From positions 1,918,501 to 1,982,500 of the forward strand of contig NC_015844.1 in the NCBI RefSeq assembly GCF_000973105.1: a stretch of 64,000 nucleotides of DNA. Direction: 5' to 3'. The notes under the pieces were generated by a model that was not told where the DNA came from, made no database searches, and saw nothing but the letters and a program-made list of their open reading frames with translations. Below, piece by piece: positions 39,356-47,548 of this stretch (positions are counted from its first letter, which is position 1; each line of letters opens with the position of its first letter). The translations under genes and the position numbers were made by a program. This stretch comes from Zobellia galactanivorans. GTDB lineage: Bacteria > Bacteroidota > Bacteroidia > Flavobacteriales > Flavobacteriaceae.

Positions 39356-40957
39356 TTAAAATTTATCGAAATTCTCTACTATTTGTTTTTTCAATTTCTC
39401 TCCTTTTTCAAACTGCGCCAACAAAGTAGCCTTTAAGGTTTCCATCTTTTCTTCAAAAGGGATGCCATCATCTTCTTCGGCCTCCGTACCCACATAAATG
39501 CCAGGAGTAAGTTTATAATCCTGCTTTTGTACTTCTTCTACAGTGGCTGCCTTACAGAAGCCAAGCTCATCTTGGTAGGGATCCAATGAGCGCCCTTCAA
39601 GAGCCTCGGGAACCGTTCGGTACGCATGATAGGCGTCTGCAATTTTTTTAATATCGGCATCTTCAAAAACCCGTAGTTTACGGCTGGCCATTTTACCCAT
39701 CTTTGCTGCATCTATAAACAATATTTCGTTCATGCGCTCACGGTGCTCGCCATCTTTACCGTCACGATTTCTGCTAAGAATAAACAAGCAGGCAGGTATG
39801 CCAGTGGTCAAAAAAAGCTTATCGGGCATACGAACGATACAATCAATCATGCCCTTATCTACCATATATTGCCGTACATTTTTTTCTCCTTTGGTGTTGG
39901 AGGTCATGGCGCCATTGGCCATTACAACGCCAGCCGTACCCCTGTCGTTCAGATGGTGCCAAAAAGTTTGCATCCACATATAATTGGCACTGCCATCTGT
40001 AGTGAATTCTTCCCGTGGGCCAAAAAGCCTGGTGTCGTTTTCCGGCAGATCCTCAGGGTGCCAATTGCTGACATTAAAAGGAGGGTTGGCGATTACGAAA
40101 TCGGCCTTTAAATCAGGGAACTTATCATCTAACAGAGAATTCCCCAATTTGATATCAAAAGAAAGATTGCGCAGCAACAGGTTCATTAAACATAAACGCA
40201 GGGTTTGGGCCGTCATTTCTTGACCGTAAATAGAGATGTCGCTCTTATTGCCGCCGTGTTCCTTAATGAATTTCAATGACTGTACGAACATACCGCCGCT
40301 ACCACAGGCAGGGTCAAAGATTCTTCCTTTATAAGGTTCCAATAGTTCCACTAAAAGACGTACAATGCTTCCTGGCGTAAAGAATTGCCCCGCACCAGAA
40401 CCTTCTGCCATGGCAAAACGGCCAATATAATACTCGTAGATACGGCCTAGAATGTCGCTCTCGGGGTTTTCCTTTTCCGAGAATTTAGGATGGGAGAGCA
40501 GGTTGATGATACCACCGGTTTGTTTTGCCGAAAGTTCGCTCTTTACAAATATTCTTGGTAGAAGGTTGTTCAGCTGCGGATTGTAGGCGGTAAGTAAATC
40601 TTGGATGGTATCAAAAGCGTCATCTACCTTTACCTTGATATCGTCTTGCTCCGCGTTATCCTTTAAATACTGCCAAGAAGCGGTTTTCGGTATCATAAAC
40701 GTATTACGCGAACGATATTCGTCCGGGTCGCTCAATACATAGTCTTTTTCCTCATGATTGGTAGTGTAATACTCGGAACTTGGTTCGTTCAAGGTGTTTT
40801 CAAGTTCCTCTTTTACAATATCAAATCGCTCACTGAGGTGTTTTAAAAAGACCAATGGTAAAATATAATTCTTATAGTTATTCTCGGAAACCGCACCACG
40901 AAGTTCGTTGGCGGCATCCCATAGTTCTTTTTCAAAATCAATATCTGCTTTGGCCAT
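39356..40957 (-). CDS. hsdM: Type I restriction-modification methyltransferase subunit
   Basis: A 533-residue N6-adenine methyltransferase. The N-terminal helical domain (WDAANELRGAVSENNYKNYILPLVFLKHLSERFD) is typical of HsdM. The SAM motif I is DPACGSGGMFVQSL and the catalytic motif IV is NPPF (VIANPPFNVSNWH). The ATG at 40957 starts MAKADIDFEKEL; the longer frame to 41005 is not conserved-looking. It is the promoter-proximal gene, so methylation precedes restriction in expression order. Confidence 0.93.
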   Translation of the reverse strand: MAKADIDFEKELWDAANELRGAVSENNYKNYILPLVFLKHLSERFDIVKEELENTLNEPSSEYYTTNHEEKDYVLSDPDEYRSRNTFMIPKTASWQYLKDNAEQDDIKVKVDDAFDTIQDLLTAYNPQLNNLLPRIFVKSELSAKQTGGIINLLSHPKFSEKENPESDILGRIYEYYIGRFAMAEGSGAGQFFTPGSIVRLLVELLEPYKGRIFDPACGSGGMFVQSLKFIKEHGGNKSDISIYGQEMTAQTLRLCLMNLLLRNLSFDIKLGNSLLDDKFPDLKADFVIANPPFNVSNWHPEDLPENDTRLFGPREEFTTDGSANYMWMQTFWHHLNDRGTAGVVMANGAMTSNTKGEKNVRQYMVDKGMIDCIVRMPDKLFLTTGIPACLFILSRNRDGKDGEHRERMNEILFIDAAKMGKMASRKLRVFEDADIKKIADAYHAYRTVPEALEGRSLDPYQDELGFCKAATVEEVQKQDYKLTPGIYVGTEAEEDDGIPFEEKMETLKATLLAQFEKGEKLKKQIVENFDKF

Positions 40958-41230
40958 ATATAGTGTATACTGGATTTTTAAGGGGGAGTAAATAATTATA
41001 ATCAAAAATAAGAAACCATATCTAAAAACAGAGAAAAGAAAAACCTAACATCTATTCTTTGTAAAACCTTTATGCAAAAGGCCCTTTTTTTCTCGCCCAA
41101 AACCTTTTACAAAAAAAATAAATTATAGTTATATCTCCCTGATTGACTATTACTAAACATTTTTTCTGTTTTTAAAGTATAACAGAAGACAATGCGCAAA
41201 AAAGTATTACATCAACATAGCTAAAATCTA

Positions 41231-45232: not shown

Positions 45233-46000
45233 ATGGATTTAACACTACCTTTTGAACCCATACTCTTCGGTATAAAATGGAATATGCACCTGATTCTCGA
45301 ATATCTGGCGTTTTTCATTGCCTTTAGGTACTATGTATTTTCCCGTAAACGCAGCACCGACGCCATTTCTTCCAACAATAGGCTGACCATAATCATCGGG
45401 GCCATTTTTGGGGCCTTGCTACTTTCCAGGCTCGTGGCTTTTTTGGAAGAGCCCCTAGTTCATTACCAACAGGGGTGGATGGTACTCATGAACAACAAGA
45501 CCATTATGGGCGGGCTGTTCGGAGGCCTATTGGGCGTGGAATTGGTCAAGAGGATCATAGGGGAAAAGCAATCGTCGGGAGACCTCTTTACCCTGCCTAT
45601 TGTTCTTGGTATTATCATCGGTAGGATAGGATGCTTTTTAGCGGGGACCAAGGAATTTACCTATGGAAAGGAAACTTCCTTTTTTATGGGGATGGATTTG
45701 GGGGACGGACTCAGCAGGCATCCCATTGCCCTTTACGAAGTCCTTTTTCTAATCGTGCTCTTCGTTTTTTTAAAACGGGTAAAAACCAAGGCCCAAGCCT
45801 TGGAAAGCGGCATGCTCTTTAAAATTTTTATGATCCTTTACTTCTCTTTCCGCTTCTTTATCGAGTTCTTGAAACCCAATACATTTTTTGTTCTTGGGCT
45901 CAGCAGCATCCAAATATTATGCTTAATTTGTCTTTTGTACTACTACAAAACGATCCGTCAAGGAATTGCCTATGCCTACCAAAGATTACACCTACTATGA
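45233..46000 (+). CDS. Lgt-like membrane glyceryltransferase homologue lacking the usual histidine
   Basis: A 255-residue membrane protein with about seven helices, related to prolipoprotein diacylglyceryl transferase. Conserved pieces are GRIGCFLAG (family GRIGNFINGE), HPIALYE (family HPSQLYE) and FRFFIEF. In the segment equivalent to FHGGLIG the protein reads LFGGLLG, so the histidine equivalent to E. coli His103 is phenylalanine. The asparagine and glutamate of the NFINGE stretch are also replaced. It is therefore probably a paralogue with a different job, not the housekeeping Lgt. It overlaps the radical SAM gene by 29 bp. Confidence 0.75.
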   Translation: MDLTLPFEPILFGIKWNMHLILEYLAFFIAFRYYVFSRKRSTDAISSNNRLTIIIGAIFGALLLSRLVAFLEEPLVHYQQGWMVLMNNKTIMGGLFGGLLGVELVKRIIGEKQSSGDLFTLPIVLGIIIGRIGCFLAGTKEFTYGKETSFFMGMDLGDGLSRHPIALYEVLFLIVLFVFLKRVKTKAQALESGMLFKIFMILYFSFRFFIEFLKPNTFFVLGLSSIQILCLICLLYYYKTIRQGIAYAYQRLHLL

Positions 46001-47366
46001 TTTTACCCTAAGCCTTTGCCCCCAATGTTTACGGCGTGTAGATGCCAAGATCATTTTTGAGAACGACAAGGTCTATATGCTCAAAAACTGCAGGGAACAC
46101 GGAAGGAGCAAAGTGCTTATTGCCGATGATATCGAATACTATAAAAACATCAGAAACTACAACAAGGCTTCTGAATACCCTAAGACCTTTAATACCAAAA
46201 CGCATTATGGCTGCCCTTATGACTGTGGCCTATGCCCCGACCACGAGCAACACTCTTGCCTTACGGTAATTGAGCTCACCGATCGCTGTAACCTTACCTG
46301 CCCTACCTGTTACGCTTCGTCTTCCCCTTCCTATGGAAGGCATCGCTCCTTGGAGGAAATCAAAAAAATGCTCGACGTTATCGTCAAGAACGAGGGCGAG
46401 CCCGATGTGGTACAGCTTAGCGGAGGTGAACCTAGCATCCATCCCCAATTTTTCGAAATTCTGGATTACGCCAAGACCTTGCCCATTAGACACTTGATGG
46501 TAAATACGAATGGGATTAAAATTGCCAAGGATTTTGCCTTTGCGGAGCGACTGGCGAGCTATGCCCCCGATTTTGAAATTTACCTACAGTTCGATTCGTT
46601 GGACAATGCGGTACTACAAACGCTACGGGGCGCCGATCTGGCCGATATACGTTTAAAGGCCTTGGAACACCTGAACCGCCTCAACTTGTCGACTACGCTC
46701 GTCGTTACCTTACAAAAGGGATTGAACGACCATGAAATGGGCGATACCATAGATTTTGCCCTCAAACAAAAATGCGTACGCGGGGTTACTTTTCAGCCCA
46801 CGCAAATTGCGGGCCGTCTAGAGAATTTTGAAGTAGATGACAACCGAATAACCCTTACCGAGGTACGGAGAAAGATTTTGGAACAATCGCCCATTTTTGA
46901 AAGCGATGACCTGATCCCCGTACCCTGCAACCCCGACGCCCTGGTCATGGCCTACGCCTTAAAATTGGGCGATGAGGTGAGTCCGCTTACCGGCTACATC
47001 AACCCTGACGATCTATTGAACGAGGGCAAGAACACCATTATCTACGAGCAAGACGAGGCGCTTCACGGAAAAATGATAGAGCTCTTCAGTACCGGTAATT
47101 CCGTTGAAAAAGCTTCGGATAACTTAAAGAGCATCATGTGCTGTTTGCCAGAGATCGATGCCCCGGAACTCGGTTACGACAACCTCTTCCGTATTATCAT
47201 CATGCAGTTTATAGACGCCCATAACTTTGATGTACGTGCCATTAAAAAATCATGTGTACACATCGTGAACAAAGACTATAAAATCATTCCTTTTGAAACG
47301 ATGAACTTGTTTTATAGGGATGACAAAGTAAAGTACTTAGAACAACTACAAAACGAAACGGTATGA
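45972..47366 (+). CDS. Radical SAM protein of the MJ0619/tetraether-synthase (COG1964) type
   Basis: A 464-residue radical SAM enzyme. The SAM cluster motif is CNLTCPTC (CX3CX2C) near residue 100, followed by QLSGGEPSIHPQF. The N-terminal part has a zinc-ribbon/rubredoxin-like CPQC near 16 with NCREHGR near 38, then GCPYDCGLC near 77-85. The C-terminus has more cysteines (IMCCLPE, KSCVHIV). This layout matches MJ0619/Tes proteins, which carry several Fe-S or Fe sites and join or methylate unactivated carbons. The ATG at 45972 lies inside the Lgt-like gene, and the end overlaps the next gene by 4 bp, so translation is coupled. Confidence 0.8.
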   Translation: MPTKDYTYYDFTLSLCPQCLRRVDAKIIFENDKVYMLKNCREHGRSKVLIADDIEYYKNIRNYNKASEYPKTFNTKTHYGCPYDCGLCPDHEQHSCLTVIELTDRCNLTCPTCYASSSPSYGRHRSLEEIKKMLDVIVKNEGEPDVVQLSGGEPSIHPQFFEILDYAKTLPIRHLMVNTNGIKIAKDFAFAERLASYAPDFEIYLQFDSLDNAVLQTLRGADLADIRLKALEHLNRLNLSTTLVVTLQKGLNDHEMGDTIDFALKQKCVRGVTFQPTQIAGRLENFEVDDNRITLTEVRRKILEQSPIFESDDLIPVPCNPDALVMAYALKLGDEVSPLTGYINPDDLLNEGKNTIIYEQDEALHGKMIELFSTGNSVEKASDNLKSIMCCLPEIDAPELGYDNLFRIIIMQFIDAHNFDVRAIKKSCVHIVNKDYKIIPFETMNLFYRDDKVKYLEQLQNETV

Positions 47367-47548
47367 TTACGCTTGTATTTCTAATGATAGGGCCTCCTAT
47401 AATTTTCTTGATTCTGGCCATTGTAGGTTTGGCAAGCAAAAAGAAAAAAATGGCCAAGACTTTCTTTATTCTAACCGGTGTTTACCTGCTCATAAGCTTT
47501 GGTACTTGCGGAATTATGCTGAGTAATTTTAGCTTGGATACGAAGTAA
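47363..47548 (+). CDS. Small two-helix membrane protein
   Basis: A 61-residue protein with two membrane segments (about 3-24 and 33-53) separated by a short lysine-rich cytoplasmic loop (ASKKKKMAK). Its ATG overlaps the radical SAM stop (ATGA), so it is translationally coupled to that enzyme. No family was recognised. The arrangement suggests an accessory or anchoring subunit for the Lgt-like/radical SAM pair. Confidence 0.7.
   Translation: MITLVFLMIGPPIIFLILAIVGLASKKKKMAKTFFILTGVYLLISFGTCGIMLSNFSLDTK

What the first reader, a model, noticed from the sequence alone, without database searches (positions are those of the whole stretch)
45233..47548. Lgt-like, Tes-like radical SAM and small membrane protein: a candidate lipid-modifying operon
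Three overlapping genes (29-bp and 4-bp overlaps) encode an Lgt paralogue missing the usual catalytic histidine, a multi-cysteine radical SAM enzyme of the MJ0619/tetraether-synthase type, and a two-helix membrane protein. Tes enzymes couple unactivated lipid carbons; Lgt binds phosphatidylglycerol. Together they suggest modification or cross-linking of a membrane lipid or lipid-linked molecule, with the Lgt fold used as lipid-binding or transfer platform.
Basis: partly seen in the sequence, partly recalled or inferred. Interest (0 to 1): 0.75.

Follow-up and report, generated by a model that had tools for sequence, protein, structure and literature searches.

The report
Three-gene membrane lipid-protein modification module
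Three overlapping genes encode a relative of the enzyme that puts lipids on proteins, a radical enzyme folded like the archaeal lipid-joining enzyme, and a tiny membrane protein with one conserved cysteine; wherever the radical enzyme occurs in the genomes sampled the lipid-enzyme relative occurs too (24 of 24 and 32 of 32), which points to an undescribed way of modifying membrane lipids or a membrane protein.

Summary
In detail: an Lgt paralogue, a Tes-superfamily radical SAM protein (rSAM) and a small two-helix membrane protein overlap by 29 and 4 bp. The module is real. In 249 Flavobacteriaceae genomes rSAM and Lgt-like genes occur in the same 32; in 296 Bacteroidota genomes 24 have both, none has this rSAM alone, one has Lgt-like alone. 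Mycobacterium and Nonomuraea plasmids carry the same three parts. The overlooked third gene is the key: nearly every locus has one or two mini-proteins with a Cys in G-x-C(G) a few residues from the C-terminus, at the predicted periplasmic end of helix 2.

The rSAM has the Tes fold over its full length (Z 40.7) with the Tes rubredoxin and N-terminal cluster ligands, but is neither Tes nor TrsS by curated cut-offs. It lacks cysteines that Tes keeps in its C-terminal cluster domain, so Tes-type chain coupling cannot be assumed. The Lgt-like protein keeps both phosphatidylglycerol-binding arginines; H103 is Met and N146 is Cys.

Best mechanism (inferred, 0.35): the Lgt-like enzyme transfers a lipid, probably rSAM-modified, onto the mini-protein's cysteine. 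No literature on the trio was found.

The parts
45233..46000 (+). Lgt-like integral membrane protein (PF01790), N146C/Y26H class, H103 replaced by Met92; keeps R131 (=R143) and R207 (=R239)
   Evidence: Pfam E 3.1e-23; predicted model vs E. coli Lgt 5azb Z 13.8, 233 residues, rmsd 4.9, next unrelated row Z 7.6; residue table; TIGR00544 50.5 bits vs cut-off 118.9
45972..47366 (+). Tes/TrsS-superfamily radical SAM protein, 464 aa: rubredoxin-like domain, N-terminal [4Fe-4S] domain, CX3CX2C core (C106, C110, C113), C-terminal domain with altered Cys set (C319, C390, C391, C428)
   Evidence: predicted model vs 7tol Z 40.7, rmsd 2.5, 403 aligned; ligand table
47363..47548 (+). 61-aa two-helix membrane protein, N-out/C-out by charge, invariant Cys49 in GTCG at the end of helix 2: proposed lipid acceptor or substrate
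45972..46000 (+). 29-bp overlap of the Lgt-like and rSAM genes (same overlap in 43 of 80 named relatives)
47363..47366 (+). 4-bp overlap (ATGA) of the rSAM and small-protein genes

Best explanation
The three genes are one functional module (shown by co-occurrence and gene order; the rest is inferred). The Lgt-like protein binds phosphatidylglycerol through its two conserved arginines in the periplasmic half of the inner membrane and transfers a diacylglyceryl (or similar) group to the conserved cysteine of the small membrane protein. That cysteine sits where the lipobox cysteine of a pro-lipoprotein would sit: after a Lys-rich cytoplasmic stretch and about 17 hydrophobic residues, but usually with Ile, Val or Thr at -1, so signal peptidase II should not cut. 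The radical SAM protein works from the cytoplasmic side on a lipid chain, as Tes does, and makes an unusual lipid that becomes the donor or is further modified once attached. The product would be a membrane mini-lipoprotein with a special, uncleaved lipid anchor. It is not ordinary Lgt activity and not proven Tes chemistry.
For: Co-occurrence: rSAM and Lgt-like in the same 32 of 249 family genomes; 24 both, 0 rSAM only, 1 Lgt only in 296 phylum genomes, also in genomes where the two genes lie on different contigs. Same parts on Actinomycetota plasmids at about 27-31% rSAM identity. Small protein with [GS]xC near the C-terminus in 96 of 103 loci; 107 such ORFs in 61 kb just downstream of the rSAM versus 2 in 750 kb of flanking control. 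Loci L124-L126, missed by that pattern, have a small protein ending in ICG between Lgt-like and rSAM. Loop charges (mean 3.69 K/R in the loop, 0.34 and 0.13 at the ends) put the Cys at the periplasmic end, the side on which Lgt works. It is the only Cys of the protein in 93 of 126. R143, R239, Y235, G154, E202 kept in Lgt-like proteins of both phyla. rSAM has the Tes fold. Two divergent loci add an ICMT/PEMT-type membrane methyltransferase to the operon, also lipid-linked chemistry.
Against: No direct evidence that the Cys is lipidated or that the Lgt-like enzyme is active: H103, Y26 and N146, each essential in E. coli Lgt, are all changed. The small protein could be a subunit instead of a substrate. 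One genome (G034) has rSAM and Lgt-like but no small protein was found near the rSAM, and G017 has the Lgt-like gene alone. The rSAM acts in the cytoplasm, the Cys is predicted periplasmic, so the link between the two steps is conjecture.
Confidence: 0.35

Rival explanations
1. One reading: the rSAM couples or alkylates free membrane-lipid chains (membrane-spanning or methylated lipids), the Lgt-like protein only binds or presents phosphatidylglycerol, and the small protein is a membrane scaffold.
For: Full-length Tes fold, Z 40.7; rubredoxin and N-terminal cluster ligands kept; bacterial Tes homologues have been proposed to make branched tetraethers (PMC8941075).
Against: C338, C455 and C470 of Tes are lost in the Bacteroidota clade, while the Bacteroidota rSAM that passes the Tes cut-off (L132) lacks an Lgt neighbour. 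It does not explain the invariant Cys of the small protein.
Confidence: 0.25
2. Peptide-maturation (RiPP-like) view: the rSAM directly modifies the small protein (for example a thioether on the Cys), and the Lgt-like protein acts on the product or helps export it.
For: Small, sequence-variable, often duplicated gene next to an rSAM (28 loci with two copies, one with three); core fold also resembles peptide maturases SuiB and SkfB (Z 19.9 and 18.4).
Against: The Cys is predicted at the periplasmic membrane face, away from a cytosolic rSAM; the match to Tes is far stronger than to any peptide maturase; no leader or RRE-like part seen.
Confidence: 0.15
3. The rSAM serves a TrsS-like small-molecule pathway and Lgt-like plus small protein form a membrane sensor or transporter for it.
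For: NCBIfam ranks TrsS first (327 bits); TrsS-type homologues sit next to a methyltransferase (DVU_1556-like in L139) and redox genes in haloarchaea and Mycolicibacterium.
Against: No such methyltransferase beside the window trio; the Lgt-linked proteins form clades of their own, apart from the TrsS and Tes rows.
Confidence: 0.1
4. Chance neighbours with no joint function.
For: Occasional unlinked copies (G034, G272, G681).
Against: Perfect co-occurrence across 29 genera of 235 and recurrence in another phylum.
Confidence: 0.01

Closest known systems
Tetraether lipid synthase Tes / GDGT-MAS (MJ0619, PDB 7tol)
   Same: Fold over the whole length (Z 40.7, rmsd 2.5 over 403), rubredoxin ligands with identical spacing, N-terminal [4Fe-4S] ligands CX3CX2CX2H, CX3CX2C core, Met439 equivalent
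   Different: 290 bits vs cut-off 450; C338, C455, C470 and Tyr459 replaced; new Cys 319, 390, 391; co-occurs with an Lgt-like gene, which the Bacteroidota Tes locus examined (L132) lacks nearby
Radical SAM (seleno)protein TrsS (NF045646)
   Same: Best-scoring curated family (327 bits); shares C96 and C319, absent in Tes
   Different: Below cut-off 490; TrsS-like rows keep the C-terminal cluster Cys and sit beside a methyltransferase, not beside Lgt
Prolipoprotein diacylglyceryl transferase Lgt (PF01790, PDB 5azb)
   Same: Fold (Z 13.8), G142-R143, G145, G154, H196, Y201-E202, Y235, R239, E243
   Different: H103 to Met/Val/Leu/Thr, N146 to Cys in all, Y26 to His in most; below the TIGR00544 cut-off; separate from the housekeeping lgt of the same genome
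N146C Lgt homologues such as MSMEG_5408 and L. interrogans Lgt (PMC13251419)
   Same: N146C; MSMEG_5408 also Y26H
   Different: No radical SAM partner reported; their neighbourhoods were not checked here
Bacterial lipoprotein precursors (lipobox)
   Same: Cys after a Lys-rich stretch and a hydrophobic helix; L/F at -3 and Gly at -2
   Different: A, G or S at -1 in only 10 of 126; Cys lies near the C-terminus, after a second helix

Membership tests
Tes (tetraether lipid synthase) | Score over the curated NF045702 cut-off (450 bits) | tested here: not met
   290.2 bits
Tes (tetraether lipid synthase) | Rubredoxin ligands CX2C..CX2H and N-terminal [4Fe-4S] CX3CX2C + His | tested here: met
   C16, C19, C40, H43; C81, C85, C88, H91 (ligands from PMC9433317)
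Tes (tetraether lipid synthase) | Conserved Cys of the C-terminal [4Fe-4S] domain, whose cluster carries the substrate (C338, C455/C456, C470 by alignment) | tested here: not met
   A323, S427/C428, E442 in the window protein; all kept in MJ0619, L132 and TrsS rows. Which of these Cys ligate the cluster was not read from a structure
Tes (tetraether lipid synthase) | Same overall fold as 7tol | tested here: met
   Z 40.7, rmsd 2.5, 403 aligned
Tes (tetraether lipid synthase) | Couples lipid chain ends | not testable with these tools
   needs lipidomics or in vitro assay
TrsS | Score over the curated NF045646 cut-off (490 bits) | tested here: not met
   327 bits
TrsS | Adjacent methyltransferase (seen in the TrsS-like loci here) | tested here: not met
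   none beside the trio; present in L139-L142, L145
Lgt | PF01790 over gathering score and Lgt fold | tested here: met
   82.8 vs 24.9 bits; Z 13.8 to 5azb
Lgt | TIGR00544 equivalog cut-off | tested here: not met
   50.5 vs 118.9 bits
Lgt | PG-binding Arg143 and Arg239 | tested here: met
   R131 and R207, invariant in both phyla
Lgt | Essential Y26, H103, N146 of E. coli Lgt | tested here: not met
   H, M, C in the window protein
Lipoprotein precursor | Small residue (A/G/S) at -1 of the Cys | tested here: not met
   T in the window protein; A/G/S in 10 of 126 small proteins

The most novel reading that the evidence does not exclude
A new class of protein lipidation: a Tes-superfamily radical SAM enzyme forms a carbon-carbon or carbon-sulfur bond involving an unactivated lipid chain, and an Lgt paralogue joins that lipid to a cysteine near the C-terminus of a membrane mini-protein, giving a covalent protein-lipid anchor unlike any known lipoprotein, present in Bacteroidota and Actinomycetota.
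Probability: 0.25. Interest if true: 0.9.

Novelty: new variant of a known kind. Interest (0 to 1): 0.7.

Why it matters
Many bacterial Tes homologues have no known role, and some have been proposed to make branched tetraethers, the lipids behind a climate proxy. This work shows that one large bacterial branch lacks Tes C-terminal cluster cysteines, is tied to an Lgt paralogue and to a Cys-bearing mini-protein, and should not be counted as a tetraether synthase. It also gives divergent Lgt paralogues (N146C class) a candidate partner and substrate, which makes their function directly testable.

Tried and rejected
Chance clustering: rejected by co-occurrence. Filing the rSAM as Tes or as TrsS: rejected by curated cut-offs and, for Tes, by the C-terminal Cys set. 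Filing the Lgt-like protein as Lgt: equivalog cut-off and essential residues fail. Small protein as a standard lipoprotein: the -1 rule fails. Small protein as PspC/LiaI: Pfam hit below cut-off (22 vs 27 bits). Literature: no paper links radical SAM with Lgt in such a cluster. phmmer of the Lgt-like protein against the PDB gave nothing; the fold comparison did. Paralogue of the small protein elsewhere in the genome: none convincing. The tree gives only weak support (66) for one origin of all Lgt-linked rSAMs and warns of long branches.

Full report
What is there. The window lies in a Zobellia-like genome (98% identical protein in Z. uliginosa). Between a divergent dihydrouridine-synthase-like gene and a convergent outer-membrane-receptor-like gene lie exactly three genes on the plus strand, overlapping by 29 and 4 bp. 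Gene 1 is a PF01790 protein, distinct from the canonical lgt, which lies at C1:3225596-3226498 of the same genome. Gene 2 is a radical SAM protein with an N-terminal HMPTM zinc-ribbon/rubredoxin domain. Gene 3 is a 61-aa protein with two hydrophobic helices.

The trio is a unit. A scan of named genomes gave 80 kept relatives of the rSAM. Of these, 77 keep the Lgt-like gene overlapping or within 200 bp upstream; in 3 it lies further away. Presence and absence was then tested in sampled genomes. In 249 Flavobacteriaceae genomes 32 have the rSAM and the same 32 have the Lgt-like protein (29 genera of 235). In 296 Bacteroidota genomes 24 have the full-length rSAM (E below 1e-100), all 24 have the Lgt-like protein, and one genome (G017) has the Lgt-like gene alone. 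In G034 and G272 the two genes sit on different contigs and still co-occur. The counts are not phylogenetically independent, but the distribution is patchy. Outside Bacteroidota, plasmids of Mycobacterium avium, M. branderi and Nonomuraea gerenzanensis carry an Lgt-like gene, small membrane protein(s) and the rSAM side by side, with the rSAM about 27 to 31% identical to the query. In the two mycobacterial plasmids the small genes lie between the enzymes; in L144 the small protein has a long Pro-rich N-terminal extension and lies upstream of the Lgt-like gene.

The small protein. Across 103 loci, 96 have at least one 50-160 aa ORF with two or more predicted helices and a [GS]-x-C within 17 residues of the C-terminus; 28 have two, one has three. 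Of the seven pattern-negative loci, L124-L126 have a small protein ending in GYICG between the two enzymes, L144 has the long fused form, L118 is cut by a contig end, L132 is a bona fide Tes without Lgt, and L121 has none that I could find. Among 126 proteins, Gly is at -2 in 121 and Gly at +1 in 108; the Cys is the only one in 93. A similar ORF search found 107 such proteins in 61 kb just downstream of the rSAM and 2 in 750 kb of control flank. In the alignment of 29 Bacteroidota copies only Ile36 and Cys49 (window numbering) are invariant. Charge distribution (loop mean 3.69 K/R, ends 0.34 and 0.13) puts the loop in the cytoplasm and the Cys at the periplasmic end of helix 2 (inference by the positive-inside rule). 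The actinobacterial copies end in G-x-C-T-G-[LI]-N-P; whether they are homologous to the Bacteroidota copies or only alike in motif and place is not shown.

The rSAM. AlphaFold2 gives a model with pLDDT 81 and pTM 0.85 that aligns to 7tol with Z 40.7, rmsd 2.5 over 403 residues; the next entry apart from 7tom has Z 19.9. The rubredoxin ligands, the N-terminal cluster ligands and the CX3CX2C motif of GDGT-MAS (PMC9433317) are present. In the C-terminal domain C338, C455 and C470 of MJ0619, kept in TrsS-like, true Tes and actinobacterial Lgt-linked rows, are A323, S427 and E442; C456 is C428 and Met439 is M411. The Bacteroidota clade has C319, C390 and C391 instead (L130 and L131 differ again, and C319 is shared with TrsS). 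The substrate-carbon-sulfur intermediate of GDGT-MAS is assigned to an [Fe4S4] cluster, proposed to be the C-terminal one (PMC9433317). Either a re-ligated cluster does similar work or the chemistry differs. The actinobacterial Lgt-linked proteins show the reverse: C-terminal Cys kept, N-terminal cluster ligands lost. By curated cut-offs the protein is neither Tes (290 of 450 bits) nor TrsS (327 of 490). Bacteroidota do have an rSAM that passes the Tes cut-off (L132, 493.8 bits), and that locus has no Lgt neighbour. The tree separates the Lgt-linked rows from Tes with strong support at the Tes branch; a single origin of all Lgt-linked rows is favoured only weakly.

The Lgt-like protein. The model (pLDDT 88.6) matches E. 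coli Lgt 5azb with Z 13.8 over 233 residues, well above the next row at 7.6. R143, R239, Y235, G142, G145, G154, H196, Y201, E202 are kept in both phyla; H103 is aliphatic or Thr, N146 is Cys in all, Y26 is His in most. The literature ties R143 and R239 to phosphatidylglycerol binding and shows H103, N146 and Y26 to be essential in E. coli, but also shows H103 replaced by Y, W or F in other Lgt proteins and an N146C group that includes MSMEG_5408 and L. interrogans (PMC4728403, PMC13251419). So the lipid-binding half is kept and the residue proposed to handle the protein substrate is changed.

How it may work. Shown: linkage, folds, ligand patterns, an invariant near-C-terminal Cys. Inferred: the Lgt-like enzyme moves a lipid to that Cys on the periplasmic face, while the rSAM changes a lipid chain from the cytoplasmic side. 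Two divergent loci (L130, L131) have in the same operon an ICMT/PEMT methyltransferase and a DUF4395 protein, again membrane and lipid chemistry.

Known or new. Each enzyme belongs to a known fold family, but none of the three proteins passes the cut-off of a characterised function, and no paper in the library describes the combination. I rate it a new variant of known kinds at present; if the Cys proves to carry a radical-made lipid it would be categorically new.

Noticed in passing
L130:7501-11088 and L131:3435-6941: Extended operon: Tes/TrsS-like rSAM, ICMT/PEMT methyltransferase, DUF4395 protein, Lgt-like, small membrane protein with FGxC near its end.
   Followed up: partly
L132:7864-9321: A Bacteroidota genome with an rSAM above the curated Tes cut-off (493.8 bits) and no Lgt-like neighbour: a possible genuine bacterial tetraether synthase.
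   Followed up: partly
L140, L141, L142, L145 (haloarchaeal plasmids) and L139: TrsS-like rSAM followed by a methyltransferase (DVU_1556-like in L139), in haloarchaea and Mycolicibacterium, near peroxiredoxin, DUF547, DUF3179 or CcdA genes.
   Followed up: partly
L165:6653-7498: Genome G017 has an Lgt-like gene of this type (49% identical) without the rSAM or a small protein nearby: orphan or repurposed.
   Followed up: partly
L133, L143, L144, L156: Actinobacterial-type Lgt-linked rSAMs lack the N-terminal [4Fe-4S] ligands but keep the C-terminal cluster Cys, the mirror image of the Bacteroidota type. L133 and L144 also have a second small membrane protein after the rSAM.
   Followed up: partly
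window 39356-41005 (minus): Type I restriction-modification methylase-like ORF (NPPF motif), read from sequence only.
   Followed up: no
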